In this document: positions 41,498 through 59,349 of the stretch, one piece after another
Layout: each line of letters starts with the position of its first letter
Position numbering within the stretch: the first letter of the stretch is position 1
DNA from: Pseudomonas cavernicola
Lineage (GTDB): Bacteria; Pseudomonadota; Gammaproteobacteria; Pseudomonadales; Pseudomonadaceae
Assembly: GCF_003596405.1 (NCBI RefSeq)
Contig: NZ_QYUR01000008.1
Span: forward strand, 558,001-622,000
Direction: 5' to 3'
Length of the DNA stretch: 64,000 nucleotides
Notes under the pieces: model-generated
Seen by the model: the letters and a program-made list of their open reading frames with translations, nothing else
Told to the model about the DNA's origin: nothing
Database searches by the model: none
Made by a program: the position numbers and the translations under genes

Positions 41498-41579
41498 GCG
41501 ATCCTTTAAATCCAGCAACGCAGAGAGCCCGATTCAGAAGGGCTCTCTGAAATTGTGGCAGACACAGCTTTTTCGAAAG

Positions 41580-42240
41580 CTAAAGTTCCCTGGCACGGGT
41601 TGATGATCCGTCGGCCCAGCGCCCAAACCCTGCAGGGATCAAGAACACGCTCGTTCCCAGTTCCGGTACCGCAATCTCCCAATTCCACTGAAGCTTGCAA
41701 ACTTCCTGCTCCCTGCATCCCGTATTGACTTTGAACAAGGCCATGGTTTGCAGGTGCGCCGGGAGTTCGGCGAACAGAATCGACTGCTCTTCCCATGAAA
41801 GCGGGTAGAGCTTCCGGCTGTTCGTTTTCTCGTCCAGCAGAGAGATCATCGGCACAACATCGAGTAATGGCCGGCGCTCTTCATCCCGCTACTTCCGCGC
41901 ACAAAGGTTCAACACTCGAATCACCCTTTGCAGCGCGATGTTCACAGTACGATTTGTGACGGGCCTGCCCTCAGCCGGGTGAAGCTTCGACTGGATGTAG
42001 GGGGCGAGCGCGTCGTCGTCGATGTGTGTGAGCGGCATATCCCCAATGAATGGGTCGAGCTGCTCCATGTAAGTGGCAGAGATGTGAATGGAGGCTTGAT
42101 CCTTCACTTCGAGCAGGAAGCGAGTCGCCGCCTCCCGCCATGTTCTGACCCGGCGCACTCCGTACACCTTCTGCTGGCGAAGTTGCTCCAGCTTGTGAAT
42201 CAGGTACTGCTCTGCTTCGGCGCGGTTACAAGTGCGCCTC
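41580..42240 (-). pseudogene. tyrosine-family phage integrase, inactive
   Basis: One minus-strand frame runs from an N-terminal part (LRQQKVYGVRRVRTWREAA, then the SAM-like core-binding domain TYMEQLDPFIGDMPLTHIDDD and NIALQRVIRVLNLCARK) through an in-frame TAG at about 41886-41888 into SWEEQSILFAELPAHLQTMALFKVNTGCREQEVCKLQW, which holds the first catalytic Arg. It ends after FLIPAGFG without the HxxR and Tyr motifs. The family normally has Trp at the stop position. So it has both a nonsense change and a 3' truncation. It marks an old integration event at the left of the defence-type island. Confidence 0.75.
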
Positions 42241-42766: not shown

Positions 42767-43822
42767 ATGAAGCTCAAGCGGGAAGCTAAAACCCCGAAGA
42801 ACAAGGCTATCGCCTCATTACGGCGCGGGTTGGAGGTCTTCAACGGTCACGACGATCATGGCCGCACAGAATCAGTTCTGCTTCATTTCCAGCACAGCAG
42901 TGAGATGCTGACCAAGGCACTCCTCGTGCAAAAATCAAAGGCGGTCTTCGATAAGCAGAAGGGGATTGCCATTGGACTTGATCGGGCACTGAATGTAGCT
43001 ACCGCCAGAGGGTACTTGACAGCTGCACAGGCAGGCTCTATCCGTGCCCTCGATACCATGCGAGATGCTGCTCAGCATTGGATGATTGTTGTGCCAGAAG
43101 ACGCGTTGTTTGTAAATGCGAGAGCGCTGCTGACAACGTTGGATGAAGTATTGGTCGAACCTTTTGAGGACTCGCTGGCAGACAATCTTCCCCTTCGCGT
43201 CATGCCACTCTCTACCACCGCGCTACCCAGCTTCGATGTTCTAGTGGATCGAGAGTTTCGGCATATCGCCGAACTTCTCGCACCCAATAAGCGCGCCCGA
43301 GACGAGGCAAGAGGACGCATACGAACCCTCCTGGCAATGGAAGCTCATGTAATCGAAACCGTTGAGGTGTCAGAAAGGGACATTGATCGAATCGAGAGGG
43401 CGATCAAGGTAGGCACTCAAGTAGATCAGGTCTTCCCAAGGTTGATTGCCTTAGCGAGCAACATCACTGGTGAGGGCCCTACTCTTCGCGTCCACTTCAG
43501 CAAAAGGGAAGGCGCACCTGTTCGGTATGTTTCAGGCGATGATCCCGAAGCCGCAGGTGCAATTCGGGAAGTGGATTTGCAGAAAAAGTACCACCTCAGC
43601 CCCACTGCACTTTCTGAACGGTTAGGGCTCACCCCGAACAAATGCAAAGCGTTACGGGAGATGCTGGGCCTCGACAACGACCAAGCCAACATAATGATTT
43701 TTGAGTTTGGCAGTCAAAAACACGCGCGCTTCTCAGATAACGCGTTGCGTATTTTGCAGGAGCACAATCACCCCGAAATTGTCGAGGCGGCTTGGCAGGC
43801 ACGTCCGAAACCTAGGCGTTAA
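42767..43822 (+). CDS. DUF3644 domain protein
   Basis: A 351-residue soluble protein. Residues about 10-180 match DUF3644: SLRRGLEVFNGHDD, VLLHFQHSSEMLTKALLVQK, IGLDRALNVA and MRDAAQHWMIVVPEDALF. The HEPN-like helical pattern of this domain and its frequent place in defence islands suggest a nucleic-acid-related role, but no function is known to me. The C-terminal part (YHLSPTALSERLGLTPNKCKALREMLGL) looks like a winged helix that could bind DNA. Stands alone beside a dead integrase. Confidence 0.7.
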   Translation: MKLKREAKTPKNKAIASLRRGLEVFNGHDDHGRTESVLLHFQHSSEMLTKALLVQKSKAVFDKQKGIAIGLDRALNVATARGYLTAAQAGSIRALDTMRDAAQHWMIVVPEDALFVNARALLTTLDEVLVEPFEDSLADNLPLRVMPLSTTALPSFDVLVDREFRHIAELLAPNKRARDEARGRIRTLLAMEAHVIETVEVSERDIDRIERAIKVGTQVDQVFPRLIALASNITGEGPTLRVHFSKREGAPVRYVSGDDPEAAGAIREVDLQKKYHLSPTALSERLGLTPNKCKALREMLGLDNDQANIMIFEFGSQKHARFSDNALRILQEHNHPEIVEAAWQARPKPRR

Positions 43823-46212: not shown

Positions 46213-47631
46213 ATGATCAACTTCGTAAATGTGGGTCCGGGTGGTACCTTCGAGGCCAGTGGCGATCACGCCACAGAAGCGGCCGAGATCGACGCCCTGT
46301 TTCAGCACCTAAGCTCAGCGGGCGAAAAGTCACTGGTGGTGCATTTCCACGGTGGCTTAGTGTCGGAAGGCGCAGGGATCGAGATCGCGCAAAAGATGGT
46401 ACCAGTGTATGAGGCCGCTGGCGCAGTTCCGCTTACCTTCGTCTGGGAAACAGGGCTGATCGAGACTTTTCGCGACAATCTGCAGAATATCCACGACACG
46501 GCGCTGTTCCAGAAACTGCTGAAGTGGCAGCTGCGCCGCGCCGCCCAGCGCTTCGGCGGTTTCGAGGGCCGCGGCGCTGGCGTGGCAATCCCGATGTCGA
46601 AGATTGAGGACGAGTTGGCGAAGCCGAGACCGTTTGCGAGCTACGACGACCTCGCGACCGGCAAGGGGGCGGCGGCGCGCGGTGGCGTCGCGGTGACGGA
46701 GGCTGATCTCGACGTGCTCAAGCAGGAGCTGCAGGCCGAATTCCAGGCAGACATCGACGGCGACTACACCGTGATCGCGGAGGTCGACGCACTGGCCGGG
46801 CGCAGCCCCGATGCCGGGGCCCGCGGCCTGATCGAAGGCCTCAAAACCGCGAAGATGCTGGCGGCGATCGCCTATCGCGTGATCCGCCGCCACATTCGCG
46901 GCCGCGATCATGGCTTCTACCCGACCGTGGTCGAAGAGCTGTTGCGCGAACTTTATCTCGCCGACCTCGGGGCCTGGGTGTGGGGACGGATGAAGGACAA
47001 GGCCACTGCGATGTGGCTGCCGAACGACGGCCTGAGTGGCGACGAGCGTCGCGTCGGCAGCTATGTGCTGGAAAAGATCGCGGCGTTACAGACGACGCGG
47101 CCGGATTTCCGCGTGGACTTGGTCGGCCACAGCGCCGGCAGCATCGCGATCTGTGAGATGTTGCGCGCAGCCGCCGCGCGCGACCTCGCTGTCCGCGTGA
47201 ACACCATTACATTCCTTGCCCCAGCCGGGCGCTCGGAACTCGGTGTCGCGGAACTCGTCCGGCATCCGGATCGTTTCAAACAATTCCGCTGCTACACCAT
47301 GGACGACGACTACGAACGCGAAGACCAACTGGTGCCCAAGGTCTACACGCGATCGCTGCTGTATTTCATTTCCGGTGTTCTCGAGCCGGACGAGGTCGAT
47401 GCACCAATCATGGGGATGATGCGCCACGCTAGTGGCCAAGGTCCATTCAGAAACGGCCCCGCCGCGGACTGGGCTGCGTTCATGACCGCGCAACAGCGGT
47501 TGGTGCTGTCCGACAACACGGTAATCGATCCGAGCGCGGTCGCCGGTCGAAGGACGTCGTCGCGTTCGCACGGCGGTTTCGACGATGACGGGCCGACCCG
47601 CGAAAGCCTGACCGAGTTGCTGCGGGTCTGA
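46213..47631 (+). CDS. alpha/beta hydrolase of a caspase operon
   Basis: A 472-residue cytoplasmic protein starting at ATG 46213, with GGAGG seven bases upstream. It has the hydrolase signature: VVHFHGGLVSEGAG early on (oxyanion/HGG region), the nucleophile elbow VDLVGHSAGS at about residues 305-314, and a TITFLAPA strand after it. There is a helical insert of about 150 residues between the two, longer than in simple esterases. First gene of a tightly packed three-gene operon (3 bp gap, then 14 bp overlap). GC-rich, unlike the DNA to the left. A lipase or peptidase effector, or an NTP-independent switch, could be its role; a defence function is inferred from partners and setting. Confidence 0.8.
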   Translation: MINFVNVGPGGTFEASGDHATEAAEIDALFQHLSSAGEKSLVVHFHGGLVSEGAGIEIAQKMVPVYEAAGAVPLTFVWETGLIETFRDNLQNIHDTALFQKLLKWQLRRAAQRFGGFEGRGAGVAIPMSKIEDELAKPRPFASYDDLATGKGAAARGGVAVTEADLDVLKQELQAEFQADIDGDYTVIAEVDALAGRSPDAGARGLIEGLKTAKMLAAIAYRVIRRHIRGRDHGFYPTVVEELLRELYLADLGAWVWGRMKDKATAMWLPNDGLSGDERRVGSYVLEKIAALQTTRPDFRVDLVGHSAGSIAICEMLRAAAARDLAVRVNTITFLAPAGRSELGVAELVRHPDRFKQFRCYTMDDDYEREDQLVPKVYTRSLLYFISGVLEPDEVDAPIMGMMRHASGQGPFRNGPAADWAAFMTAQQRLVLSDNTVIDPSAVAGRRTSSRSHGGFDDDGPTRESLTELLRV

Positions 47632-47634
47632 AGC

Positions 47635-48669
47635 ATGCCCGAGTACGCAGGCCACTACGCTCTGGTCGTCGGCATCGACCATTACCCGCGCTTCCGCTCG
47701 CTGAAGGGCGCGCGCAAGGACGCCGAAGACTTCCACGCCTGGCTGACCGATCCGGAAGGCGGTGGTGTGCTGGCGGCGAACGTGGAACTGGTGCTGTCGA
47801 GGGAGGATCCAGTGCGGCCGATCCATGACGACATCGACGACGCGTTGGAGAGGATCCTCGCCGCGGCTCGCAATGTTGCGGGCGACAAGCGCCTCTACGT
47901 TTATTTCAGCGGCCACGGTCTCGGCCGCACCAACGTCGGCGCCGATCTGTGCCTAGCGTCGTGGTCGAAGCAGCGACGGGCGATGGCGCTGGATTCGGAA
48001 GGCTATCGGAAACTGGTGATGGGCTGCGGCTATTTCCGCGAAGTGGTCTTTCTGCTCGACTGCTGCCGCGTGCGCGAGGTAGGCTCCACCGCACTGCCGC
48101 CGACGATCGAACTGCCGACGCCTGGCGACGGCGCACCCACCTGCCGCAGCTTCGTCGGTTACGCCACCGAATTCATGAACGCCGCCTACGAAGCCGAGAT
48201 TGGACAGGCCGACGGCGAAAGCGACGTGCGAGGGCATTTCACCCAGGCGCTGATGAACGCGCTCAAAGGTGCGGCGGCGGAACCGACCGGCGGCGTCCGC
48301 GCTTCGAAGCTCAAGGAATACCTTGAAGTCAACACGCCGCTGATTGCCAAGGCCAGCAACCATATCCAGAATTCGGAAGTGGTGAACGGCCTGGACACGA
48401 CTGCCGATCCGCTGTTCGGCCATGCCAAGCCGCCAGCGCAGGCGCCCGGCTTCGCGGTCAATCTCGTCTTCAGGTCCGTCGCGAAAGGCGAGGCGGTGGT
48501 CGAAGACGGCCAGTTGCGTGAGCTCAAGCGCGGCGACGTCTCCACCGGGCCGTGGCGCATCCCGGTGAGCGGCCGCACGATGCTGCTGTTGCGCTATCTG
48601 CCGACCGGTGCCGAGAAGACAATCCGCGTCCAGGGCAACGAAACGGAGGATCTCCATGTCGAGCTCTGA
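47635..48669 (+). CDS. caspase-like cysteine protease (peptidase C14 family)
   Basis: A 344-residue protein. Residues 1-230 form the caspase fold: ALVVGIDHYP (strand 1), LKGARKDAEDFHAWL, catalytic His94 in YVYFSGHGLG, and catalytic Cys143/144 in VVFLLDCCR. The C-terminal 80 residues (FAVNLVFRSVAKGEAVV...) look beta-rich and may be a partner-binding domain. Bacterial caspase-like proteases are often the activated step of abortive defence systems. Begins 3 bp after the hydrolase gene; its stop overlaps the start of the next gene. Confidence 0.88.
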   Translation: MPEYAGHYALVVGIDHYPRFRSLKGARKDAEDFHAWLTDPEGGGVLAANVELVLSREDPVRPIHDDIDDALERILAAARNVAGDKRLYVYFSGHGLGRTNVGADLCLASWSKQRRAMALDSEGYRKLVMGCGYFREVVFLLDCCRVREVGSTALPPTIELPTPGDGAPTCRSFVGYATEFMNAAYEAEIGQADGESDVRGHFTQALMNALKGAAAEPTGGVRASKLKEYLEVNTPLIAKASNHIQNSEVVNGLDTTADPLFGHAKPPAQAPGFAVNLVFRSVAKGEAVVEDGQLRELKRGDVSTGPWRIPVSGRTMLLLRYLPTGAEKTIRVQGNETEDLHVEL

Positions 48670-50467
48670 CCGCCCTGTCTATCGTCTGACCCTCGAAGCG
48701 CCAGAGCCCGGGCTCGGGGTGATAGTGATCGACGCCGAAGGCAACGTCGTCGGCCGGTGCGCGGACGATAAGTCTCGGCTGGATTTGGACCTGCCGCGCG
48801 GGTTGTACACCGTGCGGAGCAGCCGTAGTGGCGCCTTCGCCGAAACTGTGGTCCGCCTCGACGGCCCGCAATTGGTGAAGGCCGCGCCGCCACCGGTGTT
48901 TTCCGCAGCCACGATTCCCGGCGCCGCGACCACACACGAGTACTACACCTGGCCGGCCTGGGCCGCCAGCCAGACACCGACCGCACCTCTGCTGGCCTGG
49001 GACGAGCCGGCGGACGCGCGCCTGTTGCTGTTCGTGCGCGCGGCGCACCAGGGTGCCTATGCTGGCGAAGACCAACTGGCCTCGCTATCGCTGCGCATGC
49101 TCAACGGTCGCAGCTTGTCCGAGTTTAGGGACGATGCGCAGCGCGACTCGGACAAAGGTTGGGCGGCCTACAGCACGCGGCTTCCGCACGGGCTGCTTAT
49201 CCTCGAAGACCTCGGCGAACGTCCGCGCCAGATCCCGGTGCCGTTGATGCCCGGCTGGCAGACGCAGGTGTTCGTGATGCATCACAAGCGCCTGCTCTGG
49301 GAAGACATGCGTCTGGCCACGCTGCACGCCGACGTGATCGATTCACGCAAGTACCGCAGCCCCTACGACCTGCAGCCGGACGATATTCAGCCGTCGCAAG
49401 ACATGGACGCCGGCTTGCTCGCATTACAGAACAACACGCCGTCGGTGGCGCCGCAACTGATTGACGCATTTCTCGGCTCGAAGTTCCAGAACCCGATCCT
49501 CGGCCTCCTCGGCGCGTATCTGATGCTGTTGCACGAGCGGCGCGAAGCGAAAAAACCTGACTATCACGCTGACACTGGGCGCATCCGCATGGTGCTCGAC
49601 AACCTGCATGCACTGCTGCCCGAATCCGCAGACGTGGCGGCGCTGAGGCTGATGGCGGAGCCCTGGCTCGGCAAGCCGGCGCTGGCGCCGGTCGAGCGCG
49701 TGCCGCTGTTCCGCTGCGGCGCCGAAGCGCTTTTGCAGGCCGCGGCCTCCGATCCCGCGCTGCTGCCTGAAGGCTCGCTGCTGGATACGGTGTCGGACAG
49801 ACTCTACGGCGATACGGTGTGGACGACCTGGAAGCCGGTGGCGTTGCCGCTCGGCATGTATGTCGCGGCCAATCTTCCCGGTGCGGGCGCGATGCACGAG
49901 ACGAACTGGGTGGAGCAGGCAGTGGTTGACGCCGTATCGGTGGCCGAGCATCGCGGCGAAGATTTCACAGCGGACGATCTCGTCCGCCGGATCGGAGTAT
50001 CGCCGCATGCCGTGCGTAATGCGATGGATCGCCTCATCACGCGCGCCGCGACCCAACGATTGCTGCCCGACGTGGCGCCGCAGGATATTCGTCTGCTCGG
50101 AGGCAAGGTCGCGCGTACGCTTGCGGACACGCTCGGTTTGAGGGTCGACGAGAGCCTGCTGGCGCAGATCGCGAGCGGCCCTTCCTCCGTCGAAAGCGCG
50201 ACCATGACACCGAGCATCCAGCAGGTGTACTCTCGATTAAAGAAAGCTCTGTCCGAGGTCGCGGCCAAACAAGCAGGCAAGATCTCTGCTGACTCCGTGC
50301 TGACGGAGATCATCAGGCCGGACGACGCGTTGGGTCGTACCTTGTTCAGCAAACGGCTTGCCCGTCAGTTTAGCGAGCACAACATCGCGCTCTCCAACGA
50401 AGAGCTAGACGCTACAGAATCGGTTCGTGATTTAGCTCATCTGATGGCTCGAAAGCTTAGCGAATGA
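48656..50467 (+). CDS. large unknown protein of the caspase operon
   Basis: A 603-residue soluble protein. The ATG at 48656 lies inside the end of the caspase gene and has GGAGG six bases upstream, so translation is coupled. Residues 1-65 look like a beta-sandwich (YRLTLEAPEPGLGVIVIDAEG...LPRGLYTVRSS); 70-240 continue beta-rich; 240-360 are helical, TPR-like in feel; the C-terminal 90 residues (from TPSIQQVYSRLKKALSE to ATESVRDLAHLMARKLSE) resemble a small helical bundle, perhaps acyl-carrier-like with the serine in ATESVRD. I know no named family. Possible sensor, scaffold or substrate of the protease. Confidence 0.75.
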   Translation: MSSSDRPVYRLTLEAPEPGLGVIVIDAEGNVVGRCADDKSRLDLDLPRGLYTVRSSRSGAFAETVVRLDGPQLVKAAPPPVFSAATIPGAATTHEYYTWPAWAASQTPTAPLLAWDEPADARLLLFVRAAHQGAYAGEDQLASLSLRMLNGRSLSEFRDDAQRDSDKGWAAYSTRLPHGLLILEDLGERPRQIPVPLMPGWQTQVFVMHHKRLLWEDMRLATLHADVIDSRKYRSPYDLQPDDIQPSQDMDAGLLALQNNTPSVAPQLIDAFLGSKFQNPILGLLGAYLMLLHERREAKKPDYHADTGRIRMVLDNLHALLPESADVAALRLMAEPWLGKPALAPVERVPLFRCGAEALLQAAASDPALLPEGSLLDTVSDRLYGDTVWTTWKPVALPLGMYVAANLPGAGAMHETNWVEQAVVDAVSVAEHRGEDFTADDLVRRIGVSPHAVRNAMDRLITRAATQRLLPDVAPQDIRLLGGKVARTLADTLGLRVDESLLAQIASGPSSVESATMTPSIQQVYSRLKKALSEVAAKQAGKISADSVLTEIIRPDDALGRTLFSKRLARQFSEHNIALSNEELDATESVRDLAHLMARKLSE

Positions 50468-50624: not shown

Positions 50625-51974
50625 TGGACTCCTCCTCACCTCGGCATCTTGAGTGCCAGACTGAAGGTGCGAACCACAGTCAACAGTGAGAAGGAGTCCA
50701 CACATGAAGCTTATGCGCATTGGGGTCAACTTGGCCAAGAACGTGTTTCAGATCCACGGCGTGGATTGCCATGAGAAGCCGGTCTGGCGGCAGCGCCTGC
50801 CTCGCGATCGCTGGCTTCAAACGGTACTGGAGAAGATCGAGCCCGGCTGTGAGATCGGCATGGAAAGTTGCGGCGGTGCGCACCATTGGGCACGGCAGCT
50901 GGAGGCTCGCGGATTTCGGGTGAAGCTGATCGCGCCTCAGTTCGTCAAACCCTACGTCAAGAGCAACAAGAACGACGCCAACGATGCCGAGGCGATCTGT
51001 GAGCCGCCCCAGCATGCGCTTCGTCGCCATCTAGACCATCGAACAACAGGATATCCAGGCGACGCATCGCATCCGAGCCGGCTTAATCGAGCAACGGACA
51101 GCCAAGGCCAATCAGATTCGTGGGCTGGTCGCCGAGTACGGCCTTATCGCCCCAAAAGAATTACTAATGCTACGTCGTGCGATACCGCGCTGGTTGGAAG
51201 AGGCCACTAACGGTTTGACGGTACGCTTCCGGCGTTTGCTGGATGGCTTGTGGGGCGATCTTTGCGCACTGGATAAGCGCGTGGGCGAACTCGACGGCGA
51301 AATATCGGCGATCGCGGCAAGTGAGCCAACTGCCGTCCGTTTGCAGCAGCTGCGTGGCGTCGGCCCCATGATCGCCACCGCGCTCGTTGCTGCCATCGGT
51401 GATGCCCGTCAGTTTGCCAACGGCCGACAACTGGCCGCCTCGCTAGGATTGACGCCGAGGCAACACAGCTCCGGCGGCAAGGATCGGCTGCTTGGCATCA
51501 GCAAACGCGGCGATGCCTATCTGCGAACACTGATGGTTCATGGTCGGCGCTGCGTACGGCCAAGTCCAAAGACGATCGACTCAGCCAGTGGGTCGTCCGT
51601 TTAGCTGAGCGATCTCATCCCAATGTGGCCGCTATAGCACTGGCCAACAAAACTGCTCGCATGGCTTGGGCGATGCTGCGTCATGACACTGATTACCAAC
51701 CGGGACGGGCAGCGGCCTGATCCACTCACCTTAGGAGAAACACCCCTTCACCACGATTGCGAAGCAACCTGAACGATGGCAAACCGGTCGAACCGGCGTC
51801 GGCAAAACCCTCAAATGTCCAGGTGCGAAAAGCACGTAGAAGCGAATGGGAGCCGGCGCGCGAATAGCCCATCATGGCCCAGCATCAATACGATGCAGCA
51901 ATCAGAGGCCGAATATACGTGTGCAGCCGGCACGGGCGCCAAAGCGAAGGGGGCTTGCAATGAGGAGGAGTCCA
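50625..51974 (+). mobile_element. IS110-family (IS1111 type) element, decayed
   Basis: Subterminal inverted repeats TGGACTCCTCCTCA (50625-50638) and TGAGGAGGAGTCCA (51961-51974) are perfect 14-bp partners; such subterminal repeats are typical of the IS1111 group. Between them is a broken IS110-type transposase. The true ends lie slightly outside. Confidence 0.75.
50704..51720 (+). pseudogene. IS110-family transposase, frameshifted
   Basis: The N-terminal DEDD (RuvC-like) domain starts MKLMRIGVNLAKNVFQIHG and contains KNDANDAEAI; the C-terminal Transposase_20 domain is in another frame (LRGVGPMIATALVAAIGDARQFANGRQ; SKRGDAYLRTLMVHG) and the tail up to TDYQPGRAAA returns to a third. At least two frameshifts (about 51005-51090 and 51550) disrupt it. 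In addition the first catalytic Asp (usually GVDLAK) is Asn. Confidence 0.85.
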
Positions 51975-52225: not shown

Positions 52226-53851
52226 ATGGAATTGATGGGTAGCACGAAGGAGCCGGCCGCCAAGCCAGCCAAGCAGAAGAAAAATACCACGCAGGGCAAG
52301 CCCCAACCGAAGCGTGACGATTTTACTCCTACCACTATTCGCGCACTAAAAGACGCAGCGGGGAACATCTGTTCCAAACCTGACTGTCTCGTGTTTACGG
52401 CAGGGTCGAAGGAACTGAACGATGGTCCCATGAGCATTGGCATTGCGGCCCACATCACGGCTGCTGCGCCCGGCGGACCTCGCTACGACGGGACTCTCAC
52501 GAAGGAGGAACGACGGGCCGTGAGCAATGGAATCTGGCTTTGTCAGAACCATGCACGTCAAATCGATGTAGACCCTGTTCCATTTCCTGTTGAGCTTTTG
52601 AAAAAATGGAAAGCCAAGGCTGAACAACGTTCAAACGCTATGGTTGGCCAGAAGTCCATCACCGAGGCGGAGCTTAGAGACGAGATCCGCAAGGAATCGG
52701 GTCTGTCGCTGGAGCGCTTTATCAGACGCGACCTGAACCCTGTCCAGACGCCGGTCGGAGACATTATGAGTGGTTATGAGCAAAGCCTATCCAGCCTGGA
52801 CCCTCGATTCAATGTGAAGGTTATGGCAAACGGCAAGGCCATTTCACACGAAATCACCGCTGCGAGCGCAGACGCAAAATTCAATCTGGTGTTTAGCAAT
52901 ATCCATGAAATTGAGGGTTTTGTAGAGTCTGCGAATGCTTTTTTCGAAGAGGGCCGTGAGTTCACAATTCACAGCCCTAATTTCTCTTTCAAAGGCTCAC
53001 AGCTATTTGAGTCGATCCACGACAACCTCGAATCTGGGAAAATTACGCTTGGCGGTAACAAACGATTGATAAAAACAAATATCTATGTGGTAGATAATGA
53101 AGGTCATGAATTCTTTATAGATTCTTTTGAGTCTCATTCCACGCATGGTCAGAAACGTTTAATCGCAGAAGGAAAAGGCTTGGGTGGCTTCTTTCGGATC
53201 AATTATTGTTTGGAATTTGATACGACTTTGAATAAGCTTGATTTAACTTGTGGCTTGAGCGGCTGGAAAGGCAAAGACATTCTTAAGCTGCCATATTTTG
53301 CGCGCCTAGTTAAATCAATTCCTTATCTCAATGGTGGCAACTTCATTGTCGAGTATGAGTTTGGCAATGAAGTGATTAGATTTAATGCTAAAAATAATCC
53401 GTCAATAGATGATTTCGTAGATCATTATACTTGGCTAGTCTCGGTGATGCAAAAAGCCCGATCCATTGCTGAGAAGCTCGATAAGCCGATAATTTTAAAA
53501 GAATTCGACTTAAGCGCAGATTTACAACGCATTATCAATAAATACGCCGCATTGATGGACGGTAATGTTTTCGGCACAAGGAAGCCGGGGTTGATTTGTG
53601 AAGGGGAATTTGATTTTTACGATGATTATTCCCATGAAGACTTTGACCCTCAGAGCAAAGTTAGTGAATTAAAATATACTGAACATGAAGGTTTGGAGTT
53701 CAATCTGTTTGGGCAGATAGTCAAAGCCCCAAGGGTAGTCACGGATGTCAGGCCAACCGAGTCACTTATTTATTGCCCTTTGGACGAAAGAGATAAGCTA
53801 AAAGTAATCGTAAATGCGCTGGAAGAGTCTAATAGCTTCATCTTTGGCTGA
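52226..53851 (+). CDS. HNH-domain protein with a large unknown C-terminal region
   Basis: A 541-residue protein. After a basic Lys/Gln-rich tail, residues 40-135 form an HNH-type nuclease domain: Cys49 and Cys54, GIAAHITAAAPGGPRYDG with His76, NGIWLCQNHARQID with Asn101, Cys106 and His109, and a closing LLKKWKAKAEQ helix. This HNH variant is frequent in predicted defence proteins. Residues 160-541 are not recognised; they are beta-rich and lower in GC, and may be a sensor for an invader or a nucleotide. Stands alone between a dead IS110 and the large TPR protein. Confidence 0.78.
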   Translation: MELMGSTKEPAAKPAKQKKNTTQGKPQPKRDDFTPTTIRALKDAAGNICSKPDCLVFTAGSKELNDGPMSIGIAAHITAAAPGGPRYDGTLTKEERRAVSNGIWLCQNHARQIDVDPVPFPVELLKKWKAKAEQRSNAMVGQKSITEAELRDEIRKESGLSLERFIRRDLNPVQTPVGDIMSGYEQSLSSLDPRFNVKVMANGKAISHEITAASADAKFNLVFSNIHEIEGFVESANAFFEEGREFTIHSPNFSFKGSQLFESIHDNLESGKITLGGNKRLIKTNIYVVDNEGHEFFIDSFESHSTHGQKRLIAEGKGLGGFFRINYCLEFDTTLNKLDLTCGLSGWKGKDILKLPYFARLVKSIPYLNGGNFIVEYEFGNEVIRFNAKNNPSIDDFVDHYTWLVSVMQKARSIAEKLDKPIILKEFDLSADLQRIINKYAALMDGNVFGTRKPGLICEGEFDFYDDYSHEDFDPQSKVSELKYTEHEGLEFNLFGQIVKAPRVVTDVRPTESLIYCPLDERDKLKVIVNALEESNSFIFG

Positions 53852-54807: not shown

Positions 54808-57800
54808 CTAGAGTTCGGGCGGTCCTGGGATCGGCTCTTCCGTCGCGAAAGTAGCTGGGGTGTCCTCGGGCTTGCTCCTACGCTTGTCGTCTTGAACCGC
54901 CTCCTTCGGAGCAGGATCCTCATCTTCGAGCACGCCAGCAACAAACCACGGTATCACCGTGCCATACAGTACGGTGGCTTTCACGGCAACGGACTTCATT
55001 GGATGCTTGGTCCGTGCTGCCGCGCGAAGCACAAATTGCGCCACATAACGGCACTCTGCCGCATCCTCCCGAGTGAACCCGAGAGCCCAACAGAGGTAAA
55101 CGGTGGAAGAGTATATCCATTCGGCCGGGCAACTATTGTGACGAAGCAACGGCTCGACGAGGTACTCGACAAGCTCAAGAACCACCCCCAGTTCGCAGTT
55201 GCCCCGTCTGTAGAGCCAACCGATGAAGTTCAGGACAACAAGGGCCGCCGAGCCGAATTGGACCGTAGGGTCACATAGGTAGTCACGCAAGCTGTTGACG
55301 CCGATGGTAAGCCAGGAGTTCCCCTGGTCCATCATGGCCGTCAGCTCTTGCACGCTGAGCGACACGAAGGTTCGCCGCCAGAAGAGCATCTTGAGGACGG
55401 AGAGCGAATAGTCGAGAGGACGAATCTTCTCGTTAGCCGCCATGTAGAACAGCAGCTCCTGAGGCCAGACCGACCTCACGCCGAACAGGAACGCGACCTT
55501 CTGAAAACGATCATCTAGCGTCAGCAGGCTGGCCTTTTGCTCCAAGCAAAGCAGCAGGGTCGAGTACTCCTCCGTACTCAGCACCTTGTTCATCCGAAAC
55601 AGATTGGGCTCCACGACTTCCGGCCCATAGGCCGGCATGATGATGCAGTGGTCCTGGGTGGCCTTGCTAATCGTCTGCAGGAACTCTCGCTCGCGGTGCC
55701 AGTCTTCCTTAGTGTTTTCACGGAACCCGAGATGCCCCTCATGCGAGAACATGGTTCCAGATTCTCTGAACATGGAGGATTCCTCGAGCTTGCGCGCAAC
55801 TGCATCACGCGTCGCCGAGCTGACTAGTACCTTCGGAAGGTGTTTGAGCACCTCCAGGTGACCCAGGGTTGCGAGCTCGGTCAGCATCGTGAGGTCAACT
55901 ACCCATACGGCCTCCGTCTTCAACAGCTCTTGCAGGGCATCATGATTCTGGCTCCACCCGGTTCCGACCTCGAGTTTGGGCCCGTTGCTCGACCAGCCTC
56001 GCACGAGGTCGATGACGTCGCAACCCAGCCGCTGCGCGATGATGCCCAAAGGCGCCGGATGTTGTTTGTAGAGGTCCAGGGTCTGGGTGGCAAACTCCAC
56101 CCGCTTCTCTAGCTGACGCCGGATGAGGGTCAGGTCCGGCGCACCGTCCTCTGCAGTGGGCAGGGACAAAGCCGTCATGTACTTGGTCGGGCTGAGTGCC
56201 GTGTTGATGCTGTTGTGGGAAGCCTCAATCAGACGGCGATGCGAGGAGTATAGCTGCGCCACCCTGTACGTTTTGGTCTCACCGAAGTGGTCTTCCACCT
56301 TAATGGAGTCGTTCAGGTGTAGCCCAAACAATCGCTTGGCCTCGGGAGCATCCGGGGAAACGAATTCTTCGGTGGCAGGAAGTCCTTCGATGCCGTCAGG
56401 GTCGATGGTCAGACGACGTTGGCCCCCCTGGGCGTCGGTCAGAACTACGGAGGTACCAGGTCCAACCACCTCTGGCACATCTTCAAGTTCCTTGAGCGGG
56501 AGATCCGTGAGTAGGACAGATGTGAGGTGCAGCGCCGCCGCTTCTGTGTCCCCCATATGAGTGCGCTTTGCCTTGTAGAGGCGCCTCAAGCCCTTCATGA
56601 CATGGCCATGCCGGATTTCGGCAGAGGCTAGCTGAGCCATTTCTCGAACCGAACCCAACAACTCTTCCGGAGCTTCGCCAATTACAGTGTCGAGGTTGGA
56701 CTGCTCGGTGCTCGCCGCAGCCAGGATGCGCAGAAGCCAGGCAGTTGCTCGCTTCGGATCCGCCGTCATTTCATCCTCGGCGAGGGTGGCCACCATCGAC
56801 CAATCCCCGGCGACCTGGCTGAGCTCGAGCGCCATGTGACGGGCGTCCTGTGATAGCTTCCAGGCCGGCTCCATCGTTCGGAGCAGTTCACGGGCCTTGG
56901 CACGTTGCCCTGTGCGCAAGTAGCAAAAGAGCAGGTCAGTGTGCAGCTCAGAGAACGAGTTCGCCGGAAGAATCCGGGCGTAGAGCGCCGCCGCCTCGGC
57001 ATAGCGCTCACTGTGAAACAACAGCTGAGCACCAAGGTACGTTTCACCCTGTTCGGGGCTGTCTATGGACAGCTCGGCCACTCGGTCGATGTATTGCTTG
57101 GCCAGCTTCTTGTCACCACCAGGCACGCGGTGGGCACGCGCCGCGAAAACAAGGTCAGTGATGGACGTGCTGGCAGGTGTGACTCCGGCCACTGTCACTT
57201 CTACTCGAAGCTCCTCGGAGCGGCCATCCCTCAACAGCAGGTCCCAGCGCATGACGCGAAGCGTTCGGTTCAGTCGCTCTGCGTCCGGAGAGGCTGTCCT
57301 CCGCTGCCCCTCTGCCCAGGCTGCATCGAGCTTTTCGAGGTTCCTCGCTAACACGGCAGCCTGCGCATATGCCAACAGTCCGTCATCCGGAAGCTGCGGC
57401 AGCGACGCCTCCACCCGAATCAGAGCTTCTTGCGGGCGATCCAAGTCGCACAAAGCCTCGATTTCGACCCGAAAGAGTGATTCGTCAGAAGCCGCACCAA
57501 GTGCTCTGGCTTCCTCAATGAGCGCCAGGGCTTCTTGCGGTCGCTCTGTTAGCAAGTAGGCGTAGCCCAGGTGTGTCAGCGCCGCGGCCGCTACTCGCAG
57601 GTTCTGAACGGGCCACAAGGATTTCGAACGGTCGGCAAACGCCGCGGTCGCTTCGTGGAGCACGGCGCGCTGCTCCGGAGGCAGCATCCGAAAGCCAATG
57701 TTCAGGTTGTTCTGCATGGCAAGCTGCAGGGCATACCGCAGGAAGGCTTCTTTGGTGAAGAACGAGGCTTCTTCCATTGTCAGCGCCACCTTGGCGGTTT

Positions 57801-59349
57801 CGAAGGCGCCGGCGAGGTCACCTGCGCGCTCTTGTGAGGTTGCCACCACCTGCCAGGCGAGGGCTTGATGGGCGTGCTCCTTTGGAATGTCCGCCTGGGT
57901 GAGCTTGTCGCCGTTGAGAATCCGTGCGTTGGTGGCGGACACCCAAACCACCAGCGAGTCAGGGAAGCGGTCCAACGCTTCCTTGCCGGCTGCAACAGCC
58001 TCCGCGACTTCGTTCTTGAGCATGTGGCCGCGAATGCGTGCAGCCGCAAGCTTATCTTCATCGTCACATAGGGTCGCTGACTTGATGAAGTCATCTGCGG
58101 CGCCCGTTGCGTCGTCATCCATATGCCACCGGCACATGCCGCGCAGCAAGTACCACAGCGCCCGCTGGTAGTCGTCGAAGTCCTTCATGTCCTGACCCAG
58201 CATCTTCAGTTGGGCCATTGCATCACTGTAGCGGTATACCTTCAGCAGGTCGTTGATGCTGTCCAGATGGCGCGAGACGAGCTTGTTGAGTGAGCTGGGG
58301 CGAGCCGCTGGCACTGCATCCGGATAGCTCGGCTCCTGATGACGTGCGGCAGCACCGGGCACCAGGAAGGGGCCAACCGCAGGCGTGGCCAATCCCTGAC
58401 CTTCGGTACTGTGCACCGCAAGACCGAGCTGCACCGACTGTTGATGCTTACGCATCACCCGGAAAGTGTGGAACTGCGTGCTCAGTTGAACTCCGATATG
58501 GCGGCCAACGGTGGCCAGGTCCACGTCGCCGCCGAGGCCATTGAGCTCGGCGCAGGCCTGTACCAGGTGAGCCCATACGTGGCCGGTGTCCGAGTTTGGC
58601 ACGTTGGCCAGCGCCAGGATTTGCTTCTGGAGGGCGACTTCGTTAGTCGAGTCTGAGTCCAGGTCGTGATGGACGAACTTTAGGTGCACGACGAACTGGT
58701 GCAGCTCCTCGAGCGTTACTGGTGCTTTATTGAACAGCTCGGCGGCTGCCTTGATGGCAGCGTACGCTTCCCGGTTGCGTTCGTTGCTAAAGCCTTCGGC
58801 GTGAACCTTTTTCTCCCAAGATGCGGCATCACTGGACGAGCTGGCCATACTGGAGACCTCTACCGCCGGGTCCATCGACTTGGCGCTGGCACTCTGGTAC
58901 ACGATGAGGTTAGTGTCCAGGCCCCTACGGAACGTCGGTTGCTTGAAGTCGAGCCACGCCAACCCGATGGCTTCTTCGAAGGTGCCGTTCTTGGTGGTAG
59001 GCGTCAGGGCCCGCTTCATTTGCATCCGCAGCGTCCCGGTATCCCCGTTGGGAGCCGCGATGGTCAGGACTAGGTCGTCCGTATTGTGCTCATGAACTCG
59101 GCCCTGGAAGGTGAGCTTGACGATGGTGAAGTTGTCCGGAACGCCCACGCAGGGCATCTCCGCACACATGGCCAGGAGCCTGACGGCTTGTACTCGATGC
59201 TCAAAAGAGACGCCGCGGGCACCAGTGGCTTTGGGGCTGGAGACTTTCTTCTGGAGCCCGCGCTTCTTCTCGGCCAGCTGCTTCGCCTGGTTATCCTTCG
59301 CGCCTCGCTGGCCTTTAATTTTTGGGGGCTGGTCCTTGGGCATACTCAT
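54808..59349 (-). CDS. giant nuclease-TPR-GreAB-C-PIN protein, predicted conflict/defence system
   Basis: A 1513-residue soluble protein. Residues about 45-230 look like a DUF4297/Cap4-type restriction endonuclease-fold domain: FEHRVQAVRLL with Glu50, HNTDDLVLTI with Asp91-92, and RMQMKRAL with Gln110 and Lys112 (D...QxK). Residues about 350-900 are a helical repeat rich in TPR-like units (ALALIEEARALGAASDESLF; YAEAAALYARILP). Around 980-1060 lies a GreA/GreB C-terminal-like domain (GTSVVLTDAQGGQRRLTI; LFGLHLNDSIKVED), and from 1150 a PIN-type RNase domain (VVDLTMLTELATLG; LLTLDDRFQKVAFLFG). The tail is helical and charged. This order matches TPR-GreABC-PIN proteins described in bacterial conflict systems. 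Two nuclease domains in one chain suggest a suicidal effector. Confidence 0.78.
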   Translation of the reverse strand: MSMPKDQPPKIKGQRGAKDNQAKQLAEKKRGLQKKVSSPKATGARGVSFEHRVQAVRLLAMCAEMPCVGVPDNFTIVKLTFQGRVHEHNTDDLVLTIAAPNGDTGTLRMQMKRALTPTTKNGTFEEAIGLAWLDFKQPTFRRGLDTNLIVYQSASAKSMDPAVEVSSMASSSSDAASWEKKVHAEGFSNERNREAYAAIKAAAELFNKAPVTLEELHQFVVHLKFVHHDLDSDSTNEVALQKQILALANVPNSDTGHVWAHLVQACAELNGLGGDVDLATVGRHIGVQLSTQFHTFRVMRKHQQSVQLGLAVHSTEGQGLATPAVGPFLVPGAAARHQEPSYPDAVPAARPSSLNKLVSRHLDSINDLLKVYRYSDAMAQLKMLGQDMKDFDDYQRALWYLLRGMCRWHMDDDATGAADDFIKSATLCDDEDKLAAARIRGHMLKNEVAEAVAAGKEALDRFPDSLVVWVSATNARILNGDKLTQADIPKEHAHQALAWQVVATSQERAGDLAGAFETAKVALTMEEASFFTKEAFLRYALQLAMQNNLNIGFRMLPPEQRAVLHEATAAFADRSKSLWPVQNLRVAAAALTHLGYAYLLTERPQEALALIEEARALGAASDESLFRVEIEALCDLDRPQEALIRVEASLPQLPDDGLLAYAQAAVLARNLEKLDAAWAEGQRRTASPDAERLNRTLRVMRWDLLLRDGRSEELRVEVTVAGVTPASTSITDLVFAARAHRVPGGDKKLAKQYIDRVAELSIDSPEQGETYLGAQLLFHSERYAEAAALYARILPANSFSELHTDLLFCYLRTGQRAKARELLRTMEPAWKLSQDARHMALELSQVAGDWSMVATLAEDEMTADPKRATAWLLRILAAASTEQSNLDTVIGEAPEELLGSVREMAQLASAEIRHGHVMKGLRRLYKAKRTHMGDTEAAALHLTSVLLTDLPLKELEDVPEVVGPGTSVVLTDAQGGQRRLTIDPDGIEGLPATEEFVSPDAPEAKRLFGLHLNDSIKVEDHFGETKTYRVAQLYSSHRRLIEASHNSINTALSPTKYMTALSLPTAEDGAPDLTLIRRQLEKRVEFATQTLDLYKQHPAPLGIIAQRLGCDVIDLVRGWSSNGPKLEVGTGWSQNHDALQELLKTEAVWVVDLTMLTELATLGHLEVLKHLPKVLVSSATRDAVARKLEESSMFRESGTMFSHEGHLGFRENTKEDWHREREFLQTISKATQDHCIIMPAYGPEVVEPNLFRMNKVLSTEEYSTLLLCLEQKASLLTLDDRFQKVAFLFGVRSVWPQELLFYMAANEKIRPLDYSLSVLKMLFWRRTFVSLSVQELTAMMDQGNSWLTIGVNSLRDYLCDPTVQFGSAALVVLNFIGWLYRRGNCELGVVLELVEYLVEPLLRHNSCPAEWIYSSTVYLCWALGFTREDAAECRYVAQFVLRAAARTKHPMKSVAVKATVLYGTVIPWFVAGVLEDEDPAPKEAVQDDKRRSKPEDTPATFATEEPIPGPPEL

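What the first reader, a model, noticed from the sequence alone, without database searches (positions are those of the whole stretch)
46213..50467. Three-gene operon: alpha/beta hydrolase + caspase-like protease + unknown 603-residue protein
The genes are translationally coupled (3-bp gap, 14-bp overlap), keep the catalytic residues (GHSAGS; FSGHG and DCC), are GC-rich against their surroundings, and lie in an island with nuclease and HEPN-type genes. Caspase-like proteases often act as triggered effectors in bacterial defence. I do not know a named system with exactly this trio, so it is a candidate undescribed system.
Basis: partly seen in the sequence, partly recalled or inferred. Interest (0 to 1): 0.8.

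Follow-up and report, generated by a model that had tools for sequence, protein, structure and literature searches.

The report
Caspase operon predicted to unlock lipase
Three overlapping bacterial genes form a widely exchanged unit in which a caspase-like protease and a partner protein with a matching domain probably cut a lock out of a lipase-like enzyme; if confirmed, it would be a new variant of the bacterial self-destruct defences that resemble animal cell death.

Summary
In detail: hydrolase 46213-47631, caspase 47635-48669 and third gene 48656-50467 form one operon (3-bp gap, 14-bp overlap) with intact catalytic residues. It is not local: of 75 loci with a full-length hydrolase relative, 68 (two of them broken copies) carry all three genes together, from Pseudomonadota to Bacteroidota, Streptomyces and Planctomycetota. 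Yet it is sporadic (third gene in 3 of 398 genomes of the phylum, the window's own included). The caspase's C-terminal and the third protein's N-terminal domains are homologous beta-sandwiches, and the two proteins are fused in some genomes: a caspase-adaptor core. In third-gene-led searches, slot 1 held this hydrolase in 13 of 17 genomes, otherwise another alpha/beta hydrolase, a GDSL lipase plus metallopeptidase, or a metallopeptidase. Some loci append protease, nuclease or phospholipase-D modules. The hydrolase carries two R/K-small-residue sites (R120, R204) around a hypervariable insert; the caspase's acidic S1 pocket is invariant, like MALT1's. Best reading: the caspase excises this insert and unlocks a lipase-like effector, as Canu's caspase unlocks a nuclease.

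The parts
46213..47631 (+). Slot 1: alpha/beta hydrolase, predicted caspase-gated pro-lipase/esterase (472 aa); nucleophile S307, His453
   Evidence: S307 in 59 of 60 and H453 in 60 of 60 aligned relatives; weak DUF900/Ser_hydrolase/lipase matches
46570..46575 (+). Predicted caspase site 1: R120-G121 of the hydrolase
   Evidence: R45/K14 of 60; next residue G37 A12 S8 T3; also basic-small in 3 of 5 hydrolases lacking the partners
46573..46821 (+). Hypervariable insert of the hydrolase (residues 121-203), predicted gate
   Evidence: 83-127 residues long in 60 relatives; 12 of 12 shorter hydrolase relatives (L096-L107) skip about 190 profile positions that include it
46822..46827 (+). Predicted caspase site 2: R204-G205 of the hydrolase
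   Evidence: R44/K16 = 60 of 60; next residue G48 A10 S2; basic-small in 0 of 5 hydrolases lacking the partners, though 3 of the 5 are basic there
47635..48669 (+). Caspase (C14) protease, H94/C144, acidic S1 pocket D29/D142/E186
   Evidence: invariant in 59 of 59; metacaspase and weak MALT1 matches
48400..48666 (+). C-terminal beta-sandwich (Ig-like) domain of the caspase
   Evidence: profile match to the third protein's N-terminal domain, prob 92.3%, E 7e-8; 40 column-shuffled controls max 0.33%, reversed 1.1%; fold name inferred, no structure
48656..50467 (+). Third protein (603 aa): adaptor/platform
   Evidence: family in 68 trio loci; no Pfam family above cutoff in the window copy
48656..48859 (+). 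Third protein N-terminal beta-sandwich (res 1-68), homologous to the caspase C-terminal domain
   Evidence: gingipain C-terminal domain match E 3e-4
48860..49351 (+). Second beta domain (res 69-232)
   Evidence: weaker profile match to the first (prob 64%, E 9e-6) and to the caspase domain (prob 17%, E 3e-4)
49946..50044 (+). Winged-helix-like region near the third protein's C-terminus (res ~431-463)
   Evidence: weak MarR_2/HTH_11; HTH families in a few of 56 relatives; winged-helix PDB chains, best E 0.0097
48656..48669 (+). 14-bp overlap of caspase and third gene
   Evidence: overlap of exactly 14 in 22 and 11 in 13 of 68 loci, with starts chosen by rule

Best explanation
A mobile, exchangeable conflict (probably anti-phage, cell-sacrificing) module. 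SHOWN by sequence: caspase and third protein form a recurrent, co-inherited core, fused in some genomes, and share a homologous beta-sandwich domain; the hydrolase is normally encoded just upstream (downstream in L059), keeps its Ser and His, and carries two conserved R/K-small-residue sites around a hypervariable insert; the caspase's S1 pocket is acidic and invariant; slot 1 and appended modules are swapped for other lytic enzymes. INFERRED: the third protein senses the trigger (its winged helix or C-terminal cargo may contact nucleic acid or a phage product) and holds the caspase through the paired Ig-like domains; on activation the caspase cuts the hydrolase at R120 and R204, removing the insert that blocks the active site; the freed lipase/esterase attacks membrane lipids or another ester and stops the infected cell. 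Accessory protease-nuclease or protease-PLD cargo adds a second killing arm where present.
For: Trio in 68 of 75 full-length hydrolase loci, nearly all HYD-CASP-THIRD with short gaps or overlaps. Distance matrices of the three proteins over 55 loci correlate 0.90-0.93, 0 of 2000 permutations as high. CASP-THIRD fusions L052, L054-L056 (the three Stenotrophomonas loci score alike), L138, L139. Beta-sandwich homology prob 92.3%, controls at most 1.1%. Catalytic residues kept. R120 and R204 are the only two of 447 well-filled hydrolase columns with R+K of at least 90% in which Lys is common (14 and 16 of 60); the caspase's two such basic columns (of 323) hold no Lys. MALT1 D365/D462/E500 set P1 Arg (PMC4357240, passages). 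Slot-1 replacements and lytic cargo; some cargo matches defence models in PADLOC. Canu precedent: CanAB caspase complex activates gated CanC nuclease (PMC12799240, section 8).
Against: The R/K-small sites could be structural and rest on one alignment program. Site 1 is basic in 5 of 5 and basic-small in 3 of 5 hydrolases without partners, so only site 2 tracks the partners, and 3 of those 5 still have a basic residue at site 2. The third protein is a poor control for the R/K scan, since none of its 417 columns is 90% basic at all. Lipase activity is inferred from weak matches and the acid of the triad was not assigned. One core (L108) has a metallopeptidase and no lipase in slot 1. PADLOC matches near relatives were mixed: 4 of 10 large neighbour proteins matched at E 1e-5, to widely shared helicase or ATPase domains and once to a generic TPR model, with no control set. 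No relative was found in phage records or viral contigs. The matrix correlation also reflects shared ancestry.
Confidence: 0.58

Rival explanations
1. It is a detached piece of the published NTPase-dependent conflict systems (VMAP/MoxR-vWA, GAP1-GTPase), where caspase and alpha/beta hydrolase are paired effectors; the trigger NTPase lies elsewhere or was lost.
For: Kaur et al. 2020 state that caspase-VMAP genes always have an alpha/beta hydrolase neighbour (PMC7159879, passages). A VMAP system with its own hydrolase lies next to the trio in Rugamonas (L013). L133's slot-1 hydrolase looks by eye like that VMAP hydrolase. Helicase- or ATPase-like genes lie within the flanks of L003, L015 and L034, not tested as partners.
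Against: No NTPase among the 10 nearby proteins scanned; the third protein is not VMAP by Pfam (0 of 56); in L013 the VMAP system has a separate hydrolase, so the trio is a second system. Neighbours were scanned only in part.
Confidence: 0.15
2. The hydrolase is not the effector but a regulator or sensor (for example it removes an acyl group or binds a lipid); the effector is the caspase itself, or the third protein through its winged helix and C-terminal cargo.
For: Cargo with clear lytic domains sits on or beside the third protein in some loci; the third protein has the highest dN in all four close pairs; hydrolase residues outside the triad (R226, H233, E241, E242, E368) are invariant in 60 rows.
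Against: Most third proteins have no recognisable cargo domain (pYEATS, trypsin or thermolysin in 11 of 56); slot 1 is swapped among enzymes, as effectors are; dual R/K-small sites fit activation.
Confidence: 0.2
3. Not immunity: a stress, developmental or housekeeping proteolysis pathway.
For: Present in Streptomyces and Bacteroidota with complex lifestyles (recalled); no phage data exist; PADLOC context of relatives is mixed.
Against: Very sporadic: only the window's own genome among 198 of the family, and 3 of 398 of the phylum (own included) have the third gene; on seven plasmids of rhizobia, beside IS21 genes in L002 and L007; toxin-like cargo swapped between loci.
Confidence: 0.12

Closest known systems
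Canu (caspase-nuclease; CanABC, Klebsiella aerogenes), PMC12799240
   Same: Three genes; caspase with a C-terminal Ig-like fold (here inferred from profiles); a partner protein (complex with the caspase shown for Canu, predicted here); a second enzyme with conserved-glycine sites at insertions that the caspase opens (shown for Canu, predicted here)
   Different: Effector here is an alpha/beta hydrolase (or GDSL lipase, metallopeptidase), not an MBL nuclease, and lies upstream; relation of the third protein to CanB not tested (no CanB sequence at hand)
VMAP/MoxR-vWA ternary conflict systems (Kaur et al. 2020, PMC7159879)
   Same: Caspase with a neighbouring alpha/beta hydrolase; variable effectors; homologous adaptor domains in adjacent genes (the EAD principle)
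   Different: No VMAP domain in the trio or in 56 third proteins; no MoxR or vWA gene among the window neighbours and relatives' neighbours scanned, save the separate VMAP system in L013
EACC1-caspase two-gene systems (PMC7159879; NCBIfam NF047832)
   Same: Caspase similar (E 1.1e-18, 67.5 bits), constant core with variable cargo
   Different: Below the curated cutoff of 140 bits; no EACC1 search of its own was run
Nuclease-trypsin pairs of Hachiman/AVAST (PMC12799240)
   Same: Proteolytic unlocking of a co-encoded effector; trypsin+nuclease cargo in two loci (L004, L108)
   Different: Main protease here is a caspase; cargo nuclease is Endonuclease_NS, not MBL

Membership tests
Canu | Caspase with C-terminal Ig-like domain | tested here: inconclusive
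   Caspase met; C-terminal beta-sandwich inferred from profiles only, no structure
Canu | Gated MBL-fold nuclease CanC | tested here: not met
   No MBL domain in the window trio, in 56 third proteins or 60 hydrolases by Pfam; neighbours scanned only in part
Canu | CanB partner protein | not testable with these tools
   CanB sequence not held; only the paper's text was read
Canu | Effector carries dual caspase-cut insertions | tested here: inconclusive
   Two R/K-small sites around one hypervariable insert; cleavage untested
VMAP ternary system | VMAP-C/VMAP-M domains, MoxR and vWA genes | tested here: not met
   No VMAP domain in the trio or third family; in L013 a VMAP system is a separate neighbour; MoxR and vWA looked for only among the neighbours that were scanned
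EACC1-caspase system | Caspase above the NF047832 cutoff | tested here: not met
   67.5 bits against cutoff 140
EACC1-caspase system | Adjacent EACC1 transmembrane gene | not tested
   No EACC1 search was run
Paracaspase/metacaspase-type protease | His/Cys dyad and acidic S1 pocket (P1 Arg/Lys) | tested here: met
   H94, C144, D29, D142, E186 in 59 of 59; D29 aligns to the metacaspase Asp; MALT1 pocket from PMC4357240 passages; D142 and E186 equated with MALT1 by position, my inference; activity not tested
Lipase/esterase (alpha/beta hydrolase) | Ser-His-acid triad in an alpha/beta fold | tested here: inconclusive
   Ser and His conserved; acid not assigned; fold from weak Pfam/PDB matches

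The most novel reading that the evidence does not exclude
A polymorphic caspase-adaptor platform, found across many bacterial phyla, in which an Arg/Lys-specific paracaspase excises an R/K-G-flanked lid from a pro-lipase: bacterial membrane-lytic cell death by caspase-gated lipolysis, with the lipase slot and extra protease-nuclease cargo exchanged between loci.
Probability: 0.42. Interest if true: 0.86.

Novelty: new variant of a known kind. Interest (0 to 1): 0.74.

Why it matters
If right, it extends caspase-triggered bacterial immunity from nucleases and gasdermins to lipases, gives a defined Ig-like adaptor pair between caspase and platform, and names two exact residues (R120, R204) whose mutation tests the mechanism. 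It would also suggest that the hydrolase-caspase pairing reported in several predicted conflict systems is a protease-substrate relation.

Tried and rejected
Considered and dropped: (1) trio as a relic of one lineage: rejected. (2) Third protein as a VMAP or a known defence family: 0 of 56 members match VMAP in Pfam at E 0.01; window copy no PADLOC or NCBIfam match. (3) T9SS sorting domain: the gingipain match is taken as a fold hint only. (4) Z-DNA sensing: apart from four gingipain chains, ZBP1/ADAR1 winged helices are among the best PDB matches for the C-terminus, but at E 0.01 among many winged helices; not claimed. (5) Phage carriage: no match to the window hydrolase in 50,697 phage records; 27 pattern hits in viral contigs, none confirmed. 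(6) Promoter and terminator scans: counts at chance. (7) A first single-protein scan with the window's third protein found no relative in genome contigs; the hydrolase alignment did.

Literature: search listings 33, 34, 42, 50, 80, 81, 108, 109, 111. Read: passages of PMC7159879, PMC8195603 and PMC4357240; passages and section 8 of PMC12799240. No paper describing this caspase + third-protein family turned up in these searches of an open-licence library; subscription papers and supplementary tables were not searched.
Full report
OBSERVATION. The three ORFs are as described. The caspase is a Pfam C14 domain (E 2.9e-11); the hydrolase has only weak matches (DUF900 E 0.026) and the third protein none above cutoff. 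The trio is GC 0.642 in a window otherwise 0.535. The neighbourhood is an island-like patchwork: PADLOC candidate PDC-S19 at 42767-43822, a PDC-M68A/HNH-effector-like ORF at 52226-53851, a PIN-TPR-GreABC protein at 54808-59349, an IS110-type remnant at 50686-51210 (E 7.1e-6, below cutoff) and ORFs at 41506-42167 that read like a broken integrase (by eye; not tested).

CONSERVATION. tblastn searches of plasmids found the third protein in 3 and the hydrolase in 7 records of rhizobia; all 7 carry the trio (the caspase start of L006 looks out of frame). A scan of genome contigs with a 7-row hydrolase alignment gave 187 relatives, of which the best 80 loci were kept. With the window and the 7 plasmid loci, 88 loci had a hydrolase hit; 75 had the full-length family (E below 1e-70) and 13 (L077-L089) a shorter, differently built relative without the partners. 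Caspase and third gene adjoin in 68 of the 75; two of the 68 (L045, L060) are broken copies, so 66 if they are left out. The other 7: L065 and L076 are cut by contig ends (L076 still shows the third gene), L075 has an insertion-sequence-like ORF soon after the start of its caspase (by eye), L050, L064, L073, L074 lack the partners (in L064 and L074 the contig ends within about 1 kb). Record titles span Pseudomonadota, Bacteroidota, Streptomyces, Chloroflexota, Planctomycetota, Verrucomicrobiota, Calidithermus, Armatimonadota and others (phylum names recalled). Order is hydrolase-caspase-third in nearly all (L059: caspase-third-hydrolase), with a caspase/third overlap of exactly 14 nt in 22 and 11 nt in 13 of 68. 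Yet it is rare. The third gene was found in 1 of 198 genomes of the family (the window's own), 3 of 398 of the phylum (own included), 1 of 289 in the class of G566 (G566 itself), 6 of 295 in the genus of the Streptomyces locus L036 (seed included), and 4 of 197 and 4 of 199 in the families of L025 and L014 (seeds included). In most genomes only part of the first-look candidates were scored, so these are lower bounds.

RESIDUES AND SELECTION. For counts I aligned 60 hydrolases (A5), 59 caspases (A6) and 56 third proteins (A4) of the 68 trios; left out were duplicates, broken copies and some near-copies (L009, L024, L038, L045, L055, L056, L060, L063; for A6 also L006; for A4 also the fused L052, L054 and the split or cut L037, L048). 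Hydrolase S307 59/60, H453 60/60; caspase H94 and C144 59/59. Four close pairs give dN/dS 0.05-0.46 (one pair, L025/L026, has dS above 1.2), with dN highest in the third protein in all four. Distances of the three proteins over 55 loci correlate 0.90-0.93.

CORE. The caspase C-terminal domain and the third protein's N-terminal domain are homologous by hhalign (prob 92.3%, E 7e-8); 40 column-shuffled controls reach at most 0.33%, the reversed one 1.1%, and the helical part of the third protein 0.03%. A second beta domain of the third protein matches the first more weakly (64%) and the caspase domain at 17%. Caspase and third protein are fused in L052 and Stenotrophomonas L054-L056, and in L138 and L139. 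L045 scored both profiles on one short frame, but is a broken copy and not counted as a fusion.

SLOT 1 AND CARGO. Because the first survey was led by the hydrolase, I repeated it led by the third protein. Of 17 positive genomes (four of them seeds: window, G579, G580, G581), slot 1 is this hydrolase in 13, a different alpha/beta hydrolase in G867 (L133), a GDSL lipase fused to an astacin/matrixin-like metallopeptidase in G1523 and G1433 (L138, L139), and such a metallopeptidase alone in G566 (L108). Six of the 13 besides the seeds are loci already seen (L024, L031, L048, L049, L058, L070), so the independent sample is small. Motifs are intact in the replacements (GDSW, DELHP, HEFGHALGLIH, GHSLG), and so are the caspase dyad and S1 residues in their cores. 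Third proteins carry pYEATS in 8 of 56, Trypsin_2 in 2 (one with PLD, one with Endonuclease_NS) and thermolysin domains in 1. In L108 trypsin + Endonuclease_NS is a separate downstream gene. In L023, L028 and L030 a caspase + subtilase gene adjoins the trio (no other locus then held has it). Shorter hydrolase-like domains fused to caspase, amidase or papain domains occur elsewhere.

GATE. Between residues 121 and 203 the hydrolase is hypervariable (83-127 residues). Flanking it are two columns in which Arg and Lys interchange freely: 120 (R45, K14 of 60) followed by G/A/S/T, and 204 (R44, K16) followed by G/A/S. Among 447 columns at least 80% filled, six have R+K of at least 90%; four of these hold Arg with 0-3 Lys, and only 120 and 204 hold Lys often. 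The caspase has two such basic columns of 323, both without Lys; the third protein has none of 417, so it is no strong control. R/K interchange suggests recognition by an Arg/Lys-specific pocket rather than a catalytic role. The caspase has the matching pocket: D29, D142, E186 invariant, corresponding to MALT1 D365, D462, E500 (passages of PMC4357240; D29 also aligned to metacaspases; the other two equated by position). As a control, four further trio or near-trio hydrolases (L076, L131, L136, L137) keep both sites, and so do L065 and L075. Five hydrolases without partners (L050, L064, L073, L074, L109) keep basic-small at site 2 in 0 of 5 (L-G, R-R, R-R, K-R, A-V) but at site 1 in 3 of 5 (R-A, K-G, K-G, K-V, K-I). 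So site 2 tracks the partners; site 1 only partly. Five is few, and three of the five resemble each other. Twelve of 12 shorter hydrolase relatives (L096-L107) skip about 190 profile positions that include the insert.

MECHANISM AND COMPARISON. The closest published precedent is Canu: CanA (caspase with Ig-like domain) forms a complex with CanB, and CanAB converts the gated nuclease CanC to an active enzyme; the operon protects E. coli against T4 (PMC12799240, section 8). The window system has the same logic with a different effector fold and gene order, and fails the MBL-nuclease criterion, so I do not file it as Canu. Caspase-hydrolase pairing is noted in VMAP systems (PMC7159879), which suggests the relation is general. 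Steps shown: conservation, core, domain homology, R/K sites, swapping. Steps inferred: cleavage, gating, lipase activity, trigger, defence.

Noticed in passing
L083, L085, L087, L089, L079, L081 (genome-contig loci): Single proteins (777-1138 aa open frames) that fuse a hydrolase-like domain to a caspase, in L083 with an N-terminal Amidase_2; in L083 and L085 a ~640-aa gene follows (the L083 one has no Pfam match). A related, distinct system.
   Followed up: partly
L110:3043-6111 (G000 contig 2, 2087042-2090110): The window's own genome has a second, shorter hydrolase relative fused to papain and peptidoglycan-binding domains; no caspase or third-gene hit in the 10 kb read.
   Followed up: partly
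L013:2047-6168: A VMAP-type conflict system (caspase-VMAP by Pfam; MoxR-like AAA and its own alpha/beta hydrolase by eye) lies on the opposite strand next to the trio in Rugamonas.
   Followed up: partly
window 54808-59349: PIN-TPR-GreABC protein (PF20698), a predicted conflict-system component beside the trio.
   Followed up: no
window 41506-42167 and 50686-51604: Integrase-like (by eye) and IS110-type remnants on either side of the trio.
   Followed up: no
L075:10391-10966: The caspase reading frame appears interrupted soon after its start by an insertion-sequence-like ORF (by eye), while the hydrolase keeps both R/K sites.
   Followed up: no
L023:13260-15854, L028:13166-15733, L030:6357-8966: Caspase + subtilase double-protease genes adjacent to the trio in three Bacteroidota.
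   Followed up: partly
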